Shown one piece after another: positions 16,990 to 31,618 of a DNA stretch of 64,000 nucleotides. Position 1 is the first letter of the stretch. The number at the start of each line of letters is the position of its first letter. This DNA comes from Maribacter flavus (lineage in GTDB: Bacteria > Bacteroidota > Bacteroidia > Flavobacteriales > Flavobacteriaceae): the NCBI RefSeq assembly GCF_008386635.1, contig NZ_VUOE01000001.1, positions 1,875,318 to 1,939,317 of the forward strand, read 5' to 3'. The notes below the pieces were generated by a model. It saw only the letters and a list, made by a program, of their open reading frames with translations, made no database searches and was not told the origin of the DNA. Both the position numbers and the translations under genes were made by a program.

Positions 16990-17019
16990 AAAGCCTTTCC
17001 AAGATTGGGAAGGCTTTTT
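16990..17019 (+). terminator. Terminator after the YugP-type gene
   Basis: AAAGCCTTTCC / GGGAAGGCTTT arms (one mismatch) with a 6-base loop and a following T run. Confidence 0.8.
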
Positions 17020-17109
17020 GTTTGTTCAAATTTTGGCAGCCCTTCGAAATTACTGCATTGCCTTTGTGAAAGTATTTTGATTGCCAAGTCAAAAACCTTG
17101 ATGAGGGTT

Positions 17110-17580
17110 TTATATGGTAATCTGTCGGTCTATTTGCTGTGCCAACGATATGAAGGTTTCCGTTCTGGAAACCCCTTCTATTTGTTGGATTTCCTTGTTG
17201 AGGACATGCATCAAATGTTCGTTGTCCTTGCAAAGAATTTTGATTAGGATGGACCAGTTGCCCGTAGTATAATGACATTCCAAAACTTCGGGGATTTTTT
17301 CCAATTGTTTCACCGCAGCGGGATTGCTCATCGCCTTGTCCAAATAAATACCGATATAGGCCATCGTAGTATAGCCCATGGCCCTTGGGTTTATAATAAA
17401 CTTGGAGCCTTTCAATAATCCCGATGCTTCCAGCTTTCGCAATCGTTGATGAATAGCCGCCCCAGAGATACCGATGCTTCGTGCGATTTCCAACACCGGT
17501 TTCCGGGCATCCTCCATTAAAAAGCGCAATATTTTCTTATCAATACCGTCAATCTTGGTGTTTTTGTTATCGGACTTCAT
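17110..17580 (-). CDS. Lrp/AsnC family transcriptional regulator
   Basis: 156 residues. An N-terminal winged helix-turn-helix (IDKKILRFLMEDARKP ... IARSIGISGAAIHQRLRKLEASG) is followed by an RAM ligand-binding domain (~80-150, with the GNWSILIKILCKD strand). Such proteins respond to amino acids. It lies 54 bases downstream of a saccharopine-dehydrogenase-like gene on the same strand but has its own -7 box in that gap. A role in controlling the neighbouring lysine-type gene is a reasonable inference, not shown. Confidence 0.93.
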   Translation of the reverse strand: MKSDNKNTKIDGIDKKILRFLMEDARKPVLEIARSIGISGAAIHQRLRKLEASGLLKGSKFIINPRAMGYTTMAYIGIYLDKAMSNPAAVKQLEKIPEVLECHYTTGNWSILIKILCKDNEHLMHVLNKEIQQIEGVSRTETFISLAQQIDRQITI

Positions 17581-19569: not shown

Positions 19570-21039
19570 ATGAACAATACAAAGCTGTTGGGACTCATAT
19601 TAGGTCCCGTTTCGTTTATATTGATCCTTAGTTTTTTTCATCCGGAGGGATTGTCCAAGGAAGCGAACGCCGTTATGGCATCCACGGCCTGGATTGCCAT
19701 TTGGTGGATTACGGAGGCCATTCCCATTGCCATTACCGCACTTCTACCCATCGTGCTTTTCCCACTTTCTGGCGGCTTGGACCTTACCGCTACCTCAGGG
19801 TCTTTTGGGCATAAATACGTGTTTCTCTATATGGGCGGTTTCGTTATCGCCATTGCTATCGAAAAATGGAACCTGCACAAACGCATCGCCCTGAACATTA
19901 TTCATTTGATAGGTGCGGATATCCGTAAAATTATTTTGGGATTTATGGTGGCGACGGCCTTTTTATCCATGTGGATCTCCAATACGGCAACTTCGGTCAT
20001 GATGCTTCCCATTGGTCTGGCCATCATCAAACAATTAAAGGATAATCCGGCTACGGTGGAGGACGAGAATCTGTTATTTGGAAAATCCCTGATGCTCGCC
20101 ATTGCCTACAGTGCTTCCATTGGCGGTATGGCAACCTTGATAGGTACCCCGCCCAATCTGGTGTTGGCAGGGGTGGTATTGGATACTTACGGTTATGAAA
20201 TTACCTTCATGCAGTGGTTCATGTTCGGACTGCCAATTTCCGTAGTGCTGATTTTCATCTGTTGGAAATATTTGACGCGCTTTGCTTTTTCTTTCAAACA
20301 AGTCGAATTTCCCGGAGGAAGGGCAGAAATAAAAAGACTTAAGAATGGCCTGGGGAAAATCACGTATGAGGAAAAATTGATAGCACTAGTCTTTGGGGCC
20401 ACGGCCTTTTGTTGGATTACACGCTCCTTTCTGCTGCAGAAACTGTTACCGGGTCTGGACGATACCATCATCGCCATCTTTTTTGCCATTTTACTTTTCC
20501 TGATTCCGGCCAAAAAAAAGGGGGAACAGCTGCTAAATTGGGACGAGGCCGTTACGATGCCTTGGGGAATCATTTTGCTTTTTGGAGGTGGAATGGCACT
20601 GGCCAAGGGTTTTGACGAAAGTGGTTTGGCCGTTTGGATCGGTGGGCAGATGACCTCCTTGTCCGGCTTACCAATTTTCATTTTGGTGCTGGTATTGATC
20701 GCTGCGGTAAATTTTCTGACCGAGATTACCTCCAATTTGGCCACAACGGCCATGCTGTTGCCTGTTTTGGCGCCCATGGCCCTTTCCATAGATGTACATC
20801 CGTTCGTGTTAATGGTGGGTGCCGCCGTGGCAGCCTCCTGTGCCTTTATGTTGCCCGTTGCCACCCCGCCAAATGCGGTGGTTTTTGGTTCCGGTTACCT
20901 ACGGATTCCAGATATGGTCCGAAAAGGCTTTTTTATGAACATCATGTCCATCATAGTGCTGAGCCTTTTCGTTTATTTTTTATTGCCCCAACTGTGGGAC
21001 ATTGTTATTAATGGATTTCCGGAAAGTCTAAAAAAATGA
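19570..21039 (+). CDS. DASS/SLC13-family anion:sodium symporter
   Basis: 489 residues, about eleven to twelve membrane helices. Both SNT-type sodium/substrate motifs of the family are visible: SNTATSVMMLPIGLA (first repeat) and EITSNLATTAMLLPVLAPMA (second repeat), plus LIGTPPNLVLAG and MLPVATPPNAVVFG. Likely takes up dicarboxylates (succinate, malate) with sodium, though sulfate or phosphate transport exists in the family. Its TGA stop overlaps the ATG of a short candidate leader ORF (ATGA). Confidence 0.93.
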   Translation: MNNTKLLGLILGPVSFILILSFFHPEGLSKEANAVMASTAWIAIWWITEAIPIAITALLPIVLFPLSGGLDLTATSGSFGHKYVFLYMGGFVIAIAIEKWNLHKRIALNIIHLIGADIRKIILGFMVATAFLSMWISNTATSVMMLPIGLAIIKQLKDNPATVEDENLLFGKSLMLAIAYSASIGGMATLIGTPPNLVLAGVVLDTYGYEITFMQWFMFGLPISVVLIFICWKYLTRFAFSFKQVEFPGGRAEIKRLKNGLGKITYEEKLIALVFGATAFCWITRSFLLQKLLPGLDDTIIAIFFAILLFLIPAKKKGEQLLNWDEAVTMPWGIILLFGGGMALAKGFDESGLAVWIGGQMTSLSGLPIFILVLVLIAAVNFLTEITSNLATTAMLLPVLAPMALSIDVHPFVLMVGAAVAASCAFMLPVATPPNAVVFGSGYLRIPDMVRKGFFMNIMSIIVLSLFVYFLLPQLWDIVINGFPESLKK

Positions 21040-21129
21040 AACCCTCATCGAGGGATTTATCATGGCAAGTTTAATACCTCTATGAATATAAATATATAAT
21101 AATCAAATAGTTAACATGTATTTAAACGT
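21037..21129 (+). repeat. 93-bp shared leader element, copy 1 (upstream of glycerate kinase)
   Basis: This 93-base stretch aligns without gaps with 29929-30021 at about 70 of 93 positions; both copies end at the base before a start codon. Most conserved are the first 20 bases (including a CCCTC-ATC-GAGGG hairpin), ATGG(C/T)AAGTTTAAT(A/G)CCT (positions 26-43), and TTTAAACGT at the end. The ATG at 21036 opens a short frame MKPSSRDLSWQV. It could be a regulatory RNA leader, an attenuator with a leader peptide or a small mobile repeat. Confidence 0.8.
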
Positions 21130-22260
21130 ATGCGATTCCTGATTATCCCCGATAAATTTAAAGGTTCCATGACGAGCGAAGAGGTATACCGATCGTTCAG
21201 AACGGGAGTGGAGCAAGTCCTAAGCGATGCGTCCTTTCACTTTGTAAAGGCATCGGATGGGGGCGATGGTTTCTTGGACGCCATTTCAATGTACAAGGAC
21301 TGCAAAAGGGTAGCAATGAAAACTTTGGATCCCTTGGGTAGGGAAATTTCCTCGTACTATCTGTTGGATGCGAAATCAAAATCGGCCTACATAGAACTGG
21401 CCAATAGCTCTGGTATGGAACTTCTGGAACCTTCGGAGCGAAACGCCTCCTTGACCTCGACCTTTGGCAGCGGCCAACAAATTGCGGACACCATAAAAAA
21501 AGGTGCCAAAAAAATATATGTCGGTTTGGGGGGCAGTGCAACCAACGATGGGGGAATTGGCATTGCAAATGCCTTAGGATTTGAATTTTTGGATTCTAAT
21601 GGCAATCCGCTGGAACCCATTGGAAAGAATTTAAGTGAGGTTCAAAGGATTACCCAATCCTATAATTATATGGAAATCAAAGGGATACAATTCTTTGCCA
21701 TCAACGATGTCAAAAACCCGCTATTCGGAAAAGATGGGGCCGCATTTGTATACGCCGCCCAAAAAGGTGCCGATGCTGCCATGATATCGGAGTTGGACAA
21801 AGGATTGCGAAATTTATCGGAAGTCTATGTAAGACAATTTGGTTCCGATTTTTCCGAAGTACCAGGTTCAGGAGCTGCCGGGGGAACCGGATTTGGTCTC
21901 AAGGCCTTTTTTAAGGCCGATTTTCTCAGTGGAATCACTTTTATTTTGGAACTATCCGGTATAAAAGAAGTGTTGGATACCCAAAAATTCGATTACATCG
22001 TGACCGGTGAAGGCAAAATCGACGATCAGACCCTTCAGGGAAAATTGATTCAAGGGGTTATGGAACTTGCCAACAGTTACAATATTCCAGTGCTGGCCGT
22101 TTGTGGCAAATTGGACGTTCCCCTAGAAAGGCTTACTTCAAGTGGCGTTCAAGATGTTATTGAAATTGGGGACCCCAACAAATCGTTGGGATACAATATG
22201 CAAAATGCCAAGGACCTGCTTCAAAGAAGGGTATATGAGTATTTTAAATCCTTAATCTAG
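21130..22260 (+). CDS. glxK: Glycerate kinase
   Basis: 376 residues of the glycerate kinase type 1 (GlxK/GarK) family, which phosphorylates D-glycerate, usually at position 2. Motifs: IIPDKFKGSMTSEE at the N-terminus, ASDGGDGFLDA, GLGGSATNDGGIGIANALG and VTGEGKIDDQTLQGK. Length is typical. It is monocistronic behind the 93-bp leader element. No glyoxylate-pathway partners (gcl, garR) are adjacent. Confidence 0.93.
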   Translation: MRFLIIPDKFKGSMTSEEVYRSFRTGVEQVLSDASFHFVKASDGGDGFLDAISMYKDCKRVAMKTLDPLGREISSYYLLDAKSKSAYIELANSSGMELLEPSERNASLTSTFGSGQQIADTIKKGAKKIYVGLGGSATNDGGIGIANALGFEFLDSNGNPLEPIGKNLSEVQRITQSYNYMEIKGIQFFAINDVKNPLFGKDGAAFVYAAQKGADAAMISELDKGLRNLSEVYVRQFGSDFSEVPGSGAAGGTGFGLKAFFKADFLSGITFILELSGIKEVLDTQKFDYIVTGEGKIDDQTLQGKLIQGVMELANSYNIPVLAVCGKLDVPLERLTSSGVQDVIEIGDPNKSLGYNMQNAKDLLQRRVYEYFKSLI

Positions 22261-28374: not shown

Positions 28375-29709
28375 ATGGGTAAGACATTATTAAAAAACGC
28401 GAGGGTCGTAAATGAAGGTATCATTGAGGAACTAGACCTTCTTTTGGAGGGGGATTATATTTCCCGAATTTCCAAGGATATATCGGAAGCGGAAGCAACA
28501 GTCATCGATTTAAATGGGAAATATATACTACCGGGAATCATTGACGACCAAGTACATTTTAGGGAACCGGGCCTTACGCACAAAGGCACTATTGCATCGG
28601 AGAGCAGGGCGGCCGTGGCCGGGGGTATCACCACCTATATGGAGCAGCCCAACACCAACCCACAGACTACAACTATTGTCAAATTGGAGGAAAAGCATGC
28701 CATGGCAAGGGAAACTTCCTATGCCAATTATTCCTTTTTGTTTGGGGGAACCAACGATAATCTGGAAGAACTGAAACGTTTGGACAAAAATGCCTGTTCC
28801 GGAATCAAGTTGTTTTTGGGGTCATCTACCGGAAACATGTTGGTGGATGATGAGGCCGTAATCGAAGGTATTTTCAGTAATACGGAGATGGTCATTTCCG
28901 TCCATTGTGAGGATGAAACTACCATCCGTCGGAATTTGGAAGCATACAAGGAAAAATACGGTGAGGATATTCCAATTCAGTACCATCCTTTGATCAGAAG
29001 TGAGGAAGCCTGCTATCTATCCTCTTCAAAGGCGATTGCCCTGGCTAAAAAGACGGGAGCACGATTGCATGTTTTCCATCTTTCAACTGGGAAGGAAACG
29101 GATTTGTTCCAAAATGACATCCCTCTGGAAAAGAAGAAAATTACGGCGGAGGTCTGTATCCATCACCTTTGGTTTTCAGATGCCGATTATTTGGACAAGG
29201 GAACCTTGATCAAATGGAACCCGGCGGTAAAAACTGCGCAGGACCGGGATACACTTTGGAAAGCTTTGTTGGATGACAGGATCGATGTAATCGCAACAGA
29301 TCATGCCCCGCATTTACTGTCGGAAAAAGAAAATCCTTATACGAGTGCCCCCAGTGGTGGTCCTTTAGTGCAACATGCGTTGCCCGCCATATTGGAGAAA
29401 CATTTGGAAGGTGTTATCAGTTTGGAAAAAATCGTAGAAAAAATGTGCCACAATCCGGCCAAATTGTTCGATTTAGACAAAAGGGGCTATATCAAGGAAG
29501 GATATTTTGCCGATTTGGCCGTGGTTTCCCTAAACGACCCATGGCAGGTCTCCAAGGAGAATATCGTGTACAAATGTGGTTGGTCACCATTTGAAGGAAG
29601 TTCGTTCAAGGCCCGTGTTACCCATACGTTTGTAAACGGACATTTGGCGTATGAAAACGGAAAATTGTCGGATAAAAGAAATGCCAAAAGGCTCACTTTC
29701 AATAGATAA
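28375..29709 (+). CDS. pyrC: Dihydroorotase
   Basis: 444 residues. It cyclises carbamoyl aspartate to dihydroorotate in pyrimidine synthesis. The class-I amidohydrolase fold is evident: DDQVHFREPGLTHKG (57-71), GITTYMEQPNTNP, HCEDE, HVFHLST, and ATDHAPH. Note that the usual HxH metal motif is Gln59-Val-His61; I recall QVH as common in Bacteroidetes dihydroorotases, so activity is still likely. Follows the mannose synthase in an operon. Confidence 0.92.
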   Translation: MGKTLLKNARVVNEGIIEELDLLLEGDYISRISKDISEAEATVIDLNGKYILPGIIDDQVHFREPGLTHKGTIASESRAAVAGGITTYMEQPNTNPQTTTIVKLEEKHAMARETSYANYSFLFGGTNDNLEELKRLDKNACSGIKLFLGSSTGNMLVDDEAVIEGIFSNTEMVISVHCEDETTIRRNLEAYKEKYGEDIPIQYHPLIRSEEACYLSSSKAIALAKKTGARLHVFHLSTGKETDLFQNDIPLEKKKITAEVCIHHLWFSDADYLDKGTLIKWNPAVKTAQDRDTLWKALLDDRIDVIATDHAPHLLSEKENPYTSAPSGGPLVQHALPAILEKHLEGVISLEKIVEKMCHNPAKLFDLDKRGYIKEGYFADLAVVSLNDPWQVSKENIVYKCGWSPFEGSSFKARVTHTFVNGHLAYENGKLSDKRNAKRLTFNR

Positions 29710-29928
29710 AGGAGCAATTATAATTATTTACCCCATGAAATGAGCCATAACAAGTCTTAATACCCACCTTGATGGTTATTGGCGAAAACGAAGTTTCATG
29801 AATACCGCTGAAAAGCAAGTAGTAAATAATGAACTAAATCAAAGATTCATGAACACCTTTTGAAAATACAATAAACAGCGATGTGAATAATTGCATCTGA
29901 CCTTTTAATAATATTAAATATAAACAGA

Positions 29929-30021
29929 TGAAACCCTCATCGAGGGATTATTTATGGTAAGTTTAATGCCTATACAAAAGGAAATGATTAAGATTCAAAC
30001 TATTAACCTAATTTTAAACGT
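29929..30021 (+). repeat. 93-bp shared leader element, copy 2 (upstream of the DUF4296 lipoprotein)
   Basis: Ungapped match to 21037-21129 (about 70/93), again ending at the base before the start codon. The CCCTC-ATC-GAGGG hairpin is identical. The ATG at 29928 opens the short frame MKPSSRDYLW. This element fills the last third of the 312-bp gap 29710-30021. The first two thirds are AT-rich and hold only two loose direct repeats (TTTCATGAATACC..TGAAAA near 29794 and ATTCATGAACACC..TGAAAA near 29846). Confidence 0.8.
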
Positions 30022-30465
30022 GTGAAAAGTTTTAGGATTGCCATACTCGTAGTGTTATTTTTAGCTGCTTGTGGTGAAAAACTCATAGAAAAGCCGGAGA
30101 ACCTTATCCCAAAGGATAAGATGGTCCTGATTTTACAGGAGATGGCATTGATAAATGCCGCCAAGGGCGTGAATTTGGGTATTTTAAAGGATAACGGTGT
30201 GGAGCCTACCACCTATGTTTTTGAAAAGTTTGGGATAGATAGCGCACAATTTGTGATAAGTGACCGATACTATGCCTCCTTGCCAGCGGAGTATGAGACC
30301 ATCTACATCGAAGTGGAAGCTTCGTTGGAAGCCAAAAGAATCGCCCTGGAACAGGAAAAGAAAATAACCGATAGTCTGAAACTTCTTGAAAGCAAGCGAA
30401 ATAAGGAAGGGGTTCTGGACAGTTTGAAAACTAAACCCGCTACTGTCAAGGAGAGTCGTCCATAA
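30022..30465 (+). CDS. DUF4296 domain-containing lipoprotein
   Basis: 147 residues, GTG start. A lipoprotein signal ends at LAAC with Cys17. The DUF4296 core follows (IPKDKMVLILQEMALINAAKG ... YVFEKFGIDSAQFVISDRYYAS), then a charged coiled-coil tail (ALEQEKKITDSLKLLESKRNK). Function unknown; it is a conserved neighbour of pyrC and the epimerase in flavobacteria. The 3' end overlaps the convergent epimerase gene by 20 bases. Confidence 0.88.
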   Translation: MKSFRIAILVVLFLAACGEKLIEKPENLIPKDKMVLILQEMALINAAKGVNLGILKDNGVEPTTYVFEKFGIDSAQFVISDRYYASLPAEYETIYIEVEASLEAKRIALEQEKKITDSLKLLESKRNKEGVLDSLKTKPATVKESRP

Positions 30466-31453
30466 ATTTTTTGGAAGCAAATTCGATGGATTCTTTCAGA
30501 GGTTCAAATTCGAAGTGTAGCAACGTCCTTACTTTCTCGCTGGAATAACTTTCAGGATGTAAGAGGGAATAGATTTCGTTTTTGGTAATGGTCCTTGGTT
30601 TTCCGGTGAATAGGGTTTTGAGAAAATCAAAATACCTGCCAACCTCCAACTGCCATTTTTTAAGTTCTTTCCGGGGTGGCTTTTTGCCCAGGGCAGTGGC
30701 TATGGAGGTCATTATTTCCTTGTAGGTAGTATTTTCCGCAACAAGGATAAACCGTTCGTTTTTAATAGTGCTCGCCATGAGAAGTGTCATAACGGAAACG
30801 ACATCGGTTACCGACACAAACCCTGTTCCTCCCGGTGGGTAATAGGAATAGGCCTTGTTTACCGTTGTAAACAACTTGCCACTGCCGCTATTCCAAAATC
30901 CCGGACCTACAATCACCCCAGGATTTACGATTACCACGTTCAGGTTTTCTTGGGAACCCCGCCACACCTCCATTTCGGCCGAATATTTGGTAAGGGCGTA
31001 GACGTTCGTGTGCAATTCGTTCCAATCATTGCTTTCCGTCGCCTCTTTGCCAGCGGTACTTCTGCCAATGGTTCCAATGGTGCTTACATGACAGAGTTTT
31101 TTTATTTTGTGGTGGATGCACAGGTTGACCATGTTTGCCGTTCCTTCCACATTCACTTTGCGTAACTTTTTAAAATCCCTTGGGTCAAACGAAATAAGTG
31201 CCGCAGCGTGGTATACTTGTTCAATACCTAAAAAGGCAGCTTCCAATGAGGGTACATCCAGAATATTTCCCTGTACCCATTCTATTTGATTAAAAATGGT
31301 TTCTGGATTATTCTGATAATAGGCGAAGACTTTTTTAACGTCCTCCAGTTTTTCTTCGGACCTATAAATAGCGCGGACTTTTACCTTAGACAGGACCAAT
31401 CTTAAAAGTAAGTGACATCCCACCAAGCCTGTACCTCCGGTAACTAAAACCAT
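30446..31453 (-). CDS. NAD-dependent epimerase/dehydratase family protein
   Basis: 335 residues from the ATG at 31453, which places the Rossmann motif at the N-terminus (MVLVTGGTGLVGCHLL); the longer frame to 31498 adds 15 unlikely residues. Extended SDR: VYHAAALISFDPRD, active-site YALTKYSAE (YxxxK) and VVNPGVIVGPG. Related to dihydroflavonol-reductase-like SDRs; the substrate is unknown. Confidence 0.88.
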   Translation of the reverse strand: MVLVTGGTGLVGCHLLLRLVLSKVKVRAIYRSEEKLEDVKKVFAYYQNNPETIFNQIEWVQGNILDVPSLEAAFLGIEQVYHAAALISFDPRDFKKLRKVNVEGTANMVNLCIHHKIKKLCHVSTIGTIGRSTAGKEATESNDWNELHTNVYALTKYSAEMEVWRGSQENLNVVIVNPGVIVGPGFWNSGSGKLFTTVNKAYSYYPPGGTGFVSVTDVVSVMTLLMASTIKNERFILVAENTTYKEIMTSIATALGKKPPRKELKKWQLEVGRYFDFLKTLFTGKPRTITKNEIYSLLHPESYSSEKVRTLLHFEFEPLKESIEFASKKFMDDSP

Positions 31454-31618
31454 ATTCCATGTGTTTATAGCAATGTCAATCAGCTGATATTTAAACAATT
31501 AATTTTGTTTAGGCATCTTGGATTGTCCTGCCAAATCCCTCTATGACGTTTCAAATGTAGGAAATAGACTTGGATAAATTCCTCCCTAGATAGGTATGAT
31601 CAGCGGCGTATTTCCTTT

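What the first reader, a model, noticed from the sequence alone, without database searches (positions are those of the whole stretch)
21036..21129. A 93-bp leader shared, without gaps, by two unrelated genes and ending exactly at both start codons
Bases 21037-21129 (before glycerate kinase) and 29929-30021 (before the DUF4296 lipoprotein) align over 93 positions with no gap and about 70 identities by my count. The first 20 bases are identical and form a CCCTC-ATC-GAGGG hairpin; ATGGyAAGTTTAATrCCT and the last TTTAAACGT are also kept. Identical length up to the start codon argues for a functional 5' leader (riboregulator, attenuator or translation-control element), because a randomly inserted repeat would not keep register with two different genes. 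Nothing in the protein families explains it.
Basis: seen in the sequence. Interest (0 to 1): 0.78.

Follow-up and report, generated by a model that had tools for sequence, protein, structure and literature searches.

The report
Mobile repeat inserted at start codons
The shared "leader" is a copy of a short repeated DNA element that has spread through a marine bacterium's genome by inserting exactly at genes' start codons and supplying a new start codon; sister species carry the same genes without it.

Summary
In detail: 70 of 93 ungapped identities, both copies ending at start codons (next-best upstream pair in the window: 40 of 93). But it is not a two-gene riboregulator. It is family A of an interspersed repeat in Maribacter: 55 matches in this genome, 7 of 36 genus genomes, 0 of 396 other genomes in a family-level draw. 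Orthologues in relatives are empty with base-level precision: empty ..ATGA+gene, filled ..ATGA-[90 bp]-RTGA+gene. The element splits a start codon, leaves the old ATGA upstream and supplies a new start codon downstream. Two further families (B, D), different in most of their sequence, use the same site, resemble A at the right end (TGACC...AAAC-NN-ATGA) and also tend to stop at start codons. Of 62 A+B sites read, 47 open an ORF of 60 aa or more, against 44-49% of non-coding ATGA-type sites; A alone is not above that background. A, B and D can fold a left-end hairpin. No Y1 or Y2 HUH transposase was detected in this genome; the mobilising enzyme is unknown. My limited literature searches found no report of start-codon-targeting short repeats.

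The parts
21036..21039 (+). left ATGA of copy 1 (old start-codon site; its TGA is also the stop codon of the upstream sodium:sulfate symporter-family ORF 19570-21039)
   Evidence: sequence; ATGA stop/start overlap seen in element-free G002, G012, G016
21040..21129 (+). family A element, copy 1 (90 bp between left ATGA and right ATG)
   Evidence: absent in relatives
21042..21054 (+). left-end hairpin CCCTC-ATC-GAGGG
   Evidence: sequence; folds; pair counts
21130..21132 (+). new start codon (ATG) of glycerate kinase, ORF 21130-22260
   Evidence: right junction
29735..29738 (+). left ATGA of the family B element
   Evidence: sequence
29739..29927 (+). family B element, long form with an internal insert, stacked directly upstream of family A copy 2
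29928..29931 (+). ATGA junction shared by B (right end) and A copy 2 (left end)
   Evidence: sequence
29932..30021 (+). family A element, copy 2
30022..30024 (+). new start codon (GTG) of the DUF4296 protein, ORF 30022-30465
31453..31556 (-). diverged family A copy (E 2.7e-6) before a 24-codon frame; same site occupied in G002

Best explanation
The leader is a non-autonomous mobile repeat (family A, usually 94 bp from ATG to ATG) that inserts at an ATGA tetranucleotide, mostly with its right end reading into a gene. SHOWN: precise presence/absence against relatives; fixed orientation relative to the ATGA target; RTGA-type sequence on both sides of most copies; association with start codons; at least three sequence families (A, B, D) with the same kind of site, a resembling right end and a foldable left-end hairpin. 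INFERRED: insertion after ATGA splits the start codon; the element's right end (RTGA) rebuilds it, so the protein is unchanged and gains only a 94-nt 5' leader, while the old ATGA remains upstream and keeps any overlapping upstream stop codon (as in the symporter/glycerate kinase pair). Because insertion there is nearly harmless, such copies accumulate, whereas ATGA insertions inside coding sequence are lost. Mobilisation by an enzyme in trans that reads the left hairpin, the right-end motif and ATGA, perhaps as folded single-stranded DNA, is a guess; no such enzyme was found in this genome. The copies look like an old, star-like burst, probably inactive here now.
For: 55 family A matches in this genome; 7 of 36 genus genomes with 52, 14, 12, 6, 1, 1, 1 matches. 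Of 9 own A loci aligned to relatives, 8 have an element-free orthologue and 6 of them are exact at the junction in three relatives each (glxK, yaaA, mnmE, argB, bshA, fabG). Reciprocal: G002 copies L111 (empty in G007, G016, G022) and L118 (empty in this genome, G007, G012). B: of 5 loci aligned, L069 and L063 are exactly empty in five relatives each and L062 in one. Start association: among copies readable in fetched loci, A 29 of 50 and B 18 of 20 right ends open an ORF of 60 aa or more at the RTG; merging 8 stacked junctions gives 47 of 62 sites, binomial p 1.5e-5 against 0.49 (background). D: 10 of 16 hits over several genomes, some of them the same site. The RTG is the real N-terminus: QueA, RpiB, YaaA and BshA profiles match from residue 1. 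Left side is NTGA in 38 of 41 A copies. Star-like age: mean pairwise identity 75%, maximum 89%.
Against: No transposase identified: Y1 0, Y2 0, IS110 one match in this genome, and no A, B or D end in 28 fetched transposase loci. A alone at 29 of 50 is not above the 0.49 background (p 0.13), and two of the 29 (L030, L104 with TTG) are doubtful; the excess rests on B and on merging stacks. Three of 9 A loci are not base-exact (queA and cimA-like, where some relatives hold other inserts, and rpiB, diverged); two of 5 B loci likewise. Left and right tetranucleotides are both ATGA in 20 of 41 copies and differ or lie outside ATGA in 21, so whether the right RTGA is a target duplication or part of the element is undecided.
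Confidence: 0.88

Rival explanations
1. A genuine cis-acting riboregulator or attenuator family, inherited with its genes, whose hairpin and A-rich right end control translation of each gene.
For: Fixed distance to start codons in many genes; hairpin and right end diverge less than the middle in 12 orthologous pairs; in A the left AUG is predicted paired more often than with a shuffled core (0.68 vs 0.54, p 4e-4); hairpin covariation above nearly all shuffles although small.
Against: Precise element-free orthologues; unrelated genes; no Rfam match; 93.0% against 92.2% of hairpin cells paired, 4 cells with both sides changed; the frame from the left ATG is not a kept peptide; slower hairpin change also at non-start copies; no AUG pairing bias in B (left 0.67 vs shuffled 0.60, right 0.75).
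Confidence: 0.08
2. Same mobile element, but inserted copies are kept because they are useful: the left hairpin hides the displaced AUG and the right end is a good initiation region, so the element was co-opted as a 5' leader.
For: Start sites exceed the ATGA background after merging stacks; both ends change less after insertion; RNAalifold pairs columns 3-7 (ATGAA) with 23-27 in A; the left AUG is paired in the best folds of the B consensus and of two of four D copies; for A.
Against: No functional theme among the genes checked; the constraint is also present at non-start copies; copies were found by a model weighted to the hairpin; the left AUG is not paired in the best fold of the A consensus or of two D copies; B shows no AUG pairing bias; the base at -3 is C, not the favourable A reported for Flavobacterium johnsoniae (PMC6847099, passages).
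Confidence: 0.3
3. The excess at start codons is only a by-product: the machinery needs ATGA, and non-coding ATGA sites are often start codons because insertions inside genes are purged.
For: 44-49% of non-coding ATGA, ATGAA or ATGAAA sites already open an ORF of 60 aa or more (43% for RTGAAA, 34% for NTGA); A copies not at starts also mostly have TGA on the left (38 of 41 copies overall).
Against: B 18 of 20 (p 1.4e-4) and A+B 47 of 62 sites (p 1.5e-5) exceed it; the gene calling behind the background was crude.
Confidence: 0.45

Closest known systems
MITEs and other non-autonomous insertion-sequence derivatives
   Same: short, non-coding, dispersed copies with sharp ends and a repeated tetranucleotide at both ends
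   Different: no terminal inverted repeats found, asymmetric ends, fixed orientation to a target that is often the start codon
REP/RAYT and IS200/IS605-derived palindromic elements (HUH Y1; family features recalled)
   Same: subterminal hairpin next to a short fixed sequence; target-specific, orientation-specific insertion
   Different: no Y1 transposase detected in the host genome; one clear hairpin, at the left; RTGA on both sides
IS110/IS1111 (bridge RNA) elements (family features recalled)
   Same: site-specific insertion without inverted repeats, short core repeated at both ends
   Different: one IS110-type match here and none in G012, G016 or G023, which carry the repeat; no ends like A, B or D in the fetched loci
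Pneumococcal BOX and RUP repeats
   Same: small bacterial interspersed repeats (PMC3049150, search listing and start of abstract only)
   Different: not known to me to sit at start codons; different phylum (recalled)

Membership tests
MITE / DDE-transposon derivative | terminal inverted repeats | tested here: not met
   no inverted pair of 10 or more bases in window 29600-30060, which holds copy 2; consensus ends do not match when reverse-complemented, by eye
MITE / DDE-transposon derivative | target-site duplication | tested here: inconclusive
   RTGA on both sides, but left and right differ at base 1 in 8+3 of 41 copies with no GTGA/GTGA case
REP/RAYT, IS200/IS605 | Y1 (HUH) transposase in the genome | tested here: not met
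   0 matches in G000; 10 of 36 genus genomes have one
REP/RAYT, IS200/IS605 | subterminal hairpin beside a short fixed target | tested here: met
   hairpin starts 2 bases after ATGA in A; folds of A, B, D
IS91 / Y2 HUH | Y2 transposase in the genome | tested here: not met
   0 in G000; 3 of 36 genus genomes have one
IS110 bridge-RNA element | DEDD transposase whose ends match the repeat | tested here: not met
   one match in G000; no A/B/D ends in the eight fetched IS110 loci, the own one included
Rfam structured RNA (all families of release 15) | match to a family model | tested here: not met
   no match at gathering score in the window; at E up to 1 over five loci one hit, asX2, E 0.32, far below its cut-off
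cis-regulatory RNA | covarying conserved structure | tested here: inconclusive
   93.0% vs 92.2% shuffled, 4 both-side changes vs 0.5, so small but above nearly all shuffles
cis-regulatory RNA | genes with a common function | tested here: not met
   ten genes checked fall into unrelated families

The most novel reading that the evidence does not exclude
A class of short mobile repeats, with at least three sequence families of common architecture, has evolved to use the bacterial start codon as its integration site: it carries its own start codon and initiation region at one end, and a hairpin at the other that can fold up the displaced start codon, so each insertion turns itself into the gene's new 5' leader without changing the protein. 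It would be a self-camouflaging, start-codon-homing element mobilised by an undescribed enzyme.
Probability: 0.35. Interest if true: 0.85.

Novelty: new variant of a known kind. Interest (0 to 1): 0.62.

Why it matters
It shows a way for mobile DNA to enter the most constrained point of a gene without harm, and a route by which many unrelated genes can acquire the same 5' leader. It warns that identical leaders at start codons are not by themselves evidence of a regulon, and it gives natural filled/empty pairs in sister species for asking how leaders affect translation in bacteria that lack Shine-Dalgarno sequences.

Tried and rejected
Riboswitch/Rfam: no match. Conserved leader peptide from the left ATG (commonest MKPSSRDLLW and MKPSSRDLL, 6 copies each of 70): rejected, other copies stop early (MKPS 4, MKP 2), run on, or lack ATG/GTG there (9). 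Phage, plasmid or viral origin: no match (one exact 20-base pattern and one consensus). RAYT/IS200, IS91, IS110 as mobiliser: see membership test. Autonomous longer version: two apparent partial copies, L020 and L029, are copies with other DNA nested inside; no coding version seen. More families by right-end motif in 400 kb plus the window: four B-type hits and six others that did not look like elements, against 1.8 per 400 kb in shuffles. An all-against-all comparison of non-coding DNA in the 400 kb gave one 10-member and one local 5-member cluster and seven pairs, not examined further. Left-arm/right-arm pairing in D: two script versions used a wrong offset or too narrow a pattern (no support); with arms read off by hand for 14 copies, 71 pairs against 60.6 shuffled, p 0.0009, but within the D2 subtype alone p 0.10. 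AUG hiding: supported in A, not in B.

Rows dropped or limits: A1 left out L020, L027, L029 and L030 of the 30 loci. A2 holds 70 of the 71 copies listed (L130 left out). Counts cover only loci fetched by then, not the whole genome: 50 A right ends against 55 matches, 20 B right ends against 46 partial B matches; they are mechanical (TTG allowed). One search used one hand-chosen pair per site, 12 in all, out of the groups; one group there (L019, L059, L070, L115, L323) was partly mis-joined through flanking B elements and only L115-L323 was kept. L008 (window copy 2) was in the joined query but gave no relative to align, so copy 2 itself has no empty-site test; L076 and L117 were queried but not aligned. 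One search left out D copies L272, L283 and L211 (same sites as listed ones) and the hybrid L284; L276 and L281 are one site in two genomes and both kept. L284 is counted under both B and D. The family-level search used strict filters and scored ten candidates per genome.

Full report
1. Observation. The two 93-mers are real, ungapped and end at start codons: 70 of 93 identities, first difference after 21 bases, while the next-best pair among 63 upstream regions in the window has 40. The downstream genes are glycerate kinase and a DUF4296 protein; the ORF upstream of copy 1 is a sodium:sulfate symporter family protein.

2. It is a dispersed repeat. A BLAST of copy 1 against this genome gave 36 matches; a model of 26 copies gave 55 at E up to 0.01. 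In the genus, 7 of 36 genomes have it at E up to 0.001, with 52, 14, 12, 6, 1, 1 and 1 matches. In a family-level draw of 397 genomes only this genome matched at E up to 1e-6, with stricter filters and ten candidates scored per genome; the draw included two congeners that also lacked it. An exact 22-base search of named genomes gave six stretches: one in Maribacter litopenaei, three in Maribacter sp. 4G9 and two in MAG contigs labelled Bacteroidales and Bacteroidia. Contig lengths (3864532; 78237, 42657, 73203) identify the first two as G012 and G016, so the window is from the genus Maribacter (Flavobacteriaceae).

3. Register with start codons. Of 50 distinct own copies of A with a readable right end in the fetched loci, 29 open an ORF of at least 60 codons at the right RTG; for family B it is 18 of 20. 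The count is mechanical; L030 (a terminator-like sequence follows the ATG) and L104 (TTG) are doubtful members of the 29. Eight other junctions are stacks in which one element runs directly into the next; the chains I followed end at such an ORF except L002, which ends at a 41-codon frame. Counting stacks once gives 47 of 62 sites. Background: in 400 kb of this genome, 44-49% of ATGA, ATGAA or ATGAAA sites outside ORF bodies open an ORF of 60 codons (43% for RTGAAA, 34% for NTGA; gene calling crude). The excess is significant for B (p 1.4e-4) and for A+B sites (p 1.5e-5), not for A alone unmerged (p 0.13). The profile matches of QueA, RpiB, YaaA and BshA begin at residue 1, so the element-borne ATG is the true start there. 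Ten genes checked are unrelated (QueA, RpiB, YaaA, MnmE, ArgB, BshA, FabG, a CimA/LeuA-like and a SerA-like enzyme, a metallo-hydrolase/rhodanese protein).

4. Empty sites. I joined the flanks of ten own A loci without the element and searched 36 genus genomes, then aligned 9 loci with fetched relatives. glxK, yaaA, mnmE, argB, bshA and fabG are empty with an exact junction in three relatives each; queA is empty in four relatives and carries other inserts in four; the cimA-like gene is empty in three and carries a family D element in two; rpiB flanks are too diverged. Example, yaaA: relatives read ..AAATGAAAATTG.., this genome reads ..AAATGAA-[ACCC...ACTT]-ATGAAGATAG... In glxK the relatives have the symporter stop and kinase start overlapping as ATGA; the element sits in that overlap, so the stop stays left and a new start stands right. 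Copy 2 (DUF4296) found no relative to compare. For B, 6 loci were queried and 5 aligned: two are exactly empty in five relatives each, one in one relative, two are diverged. For G002 copies of A, 5 were queried and 4 aligned: L111 is empty in G007, G016 and G022, L118 is empty in this genome, G007 and G012; L112 and L115 are empty in two relatives each, while this genome has another insert at the first and a copy at the second.

5. Anatomy. A: ATGA, 2 bases, hairpin CCCTC-ATC-GAGGG, about 70 bp..TGACCTAATTTTAAACGT, RTGA; the ATG-to-ATG distance is 94 in 27 of 41 copies. B: ATGA-AATGAGCCATAAC...GTTATTGGCGAATTGCATCTGACCTATTAAAAACAATAAAAATAAACAG-ATGA. D: ATGA-AAC...GTTACATGTGACC..AAAACAATAAAATAAACAC-ATGA; 10 of 16 hits in five genomes stand before an ORF of 60 codons, some hits being one site in two genomes. 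B and D share the right third; A resembles it only at TGACCTA and TAAAC-NN-ATGA, a resemblance by eye. Left/right tetranucleotides in A: ATGA/ATGA 20, ATGA/GTGA 8, GTGA/ATGA 3, GTGA/GTGA 0, other combinations 10, of 41; TGA on the left in 38. Since the orthologues of two genes with a right GTG (fabG, cimA-like) use ATG, I lean to the right RTGA being carried by the element, but a duplication with later change is not excluded.

6. Structure and constraint. The A and B consensus and three of four D copies fold better than shuffles (z -2.7 to -5.0; the fourth D copy z -0.2). In A the hairpin covariation is small though above nearly all shuffles. Across 12 orthologous copy pairs the hairpin changed at 12 of 228 positions, the middle at 99 of 706 and the right end at 6 of 132; the hairpin was slower in 11 of 12. 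The same trend is present in the 5 non-start pairs (7/95 vs 48/296), and the copies were found by a model that favours intact hairpins, so I treat post-insertion selection as suggested, not shown. Predicted pairing of the left AUG exceeds shuffled cores in 41 A copies (0.68 vs 0.54) but not significantly in 11 B copies (0.67 vs 0.60), where the right AUG is paired more (0.75).

7. Mobilisation. Own copies are on average 85% identical to the consensus, 75% to each other, at most 89% (41 rows): an old, star-like burst. Y1 and Y2 HUH transposases were not detected in this genome; one IS110-type match exists here while G012, G016 and G023, which carry the repeat, have none. No ends of A, B or D lie in the 28 fetched transposase loci. 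The enzyme is unknown.

8. Novelty. Library searches for repeats or insertion elements at start codons in Bacteroidetes or bacteria in general gave no such report in their listings (open-access full text only; searches failed). I read passages of one paper on initiation in Flavobacterium johnsoniae, where adenines at -3, -6, -12 and -13 favour initiation and AUGs near the start codon are under-represented (PMC6847099); the element ends offer A at -6 but C at -3. I file the finding as a new variant of short non-autonomous mobile repeats.

Noticed in passing
window 29735-29927; L058, L070, L019, L015: Elements stack at the same start codon (A then B, B then A, A then A), each junction sharing one RTGA-type site.
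   Followed up: partly
window 29790-29895; L077, L073, L055: Long forms of family B carry internal modules at GGCGAA/TTGCATC that recur in several copies: a further repeat nested in B.
   Followed up: no
L020 1490-1810: A family A copy interrupted by DNA with inverted arms TGTCAGTTCGAGTG / CACTCGAACTGACA, apparently another palindromic element.
   Followed up: no
L317 (own genome, C2 about 73850-74050): Upstream of a gene that carries A in G002, this genome has a different insert with a GC-rich hairpin.
   Followed up: no
L130, L131: Copies on contigs labelled Bacteroidales and Bacteroidia MAG; L131 has the same downstream flank as the G007/G023 copies and is probably a Maribacter contig; L130 is weaker and precedes a 238-codon frame that looks like a metallophosphatase (by eye).
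   Followed up: partly
L240, L243-L247 (G007): Eight equal-scoring matches to a Y2 (IS91-type) transposase, 442-aa frames, in one congener.
   Followed up: no
L099 and L127: Both end before a similar 19-codon frame (MKQKGKLSQLPLL..., MKQKGKLIQLPLL...), perhaps a small gene.
   Followed up: no
window 17014-17115 (- strand): A very weak family A match (E 0.006) that I did not count as an element.
   Followed up: no
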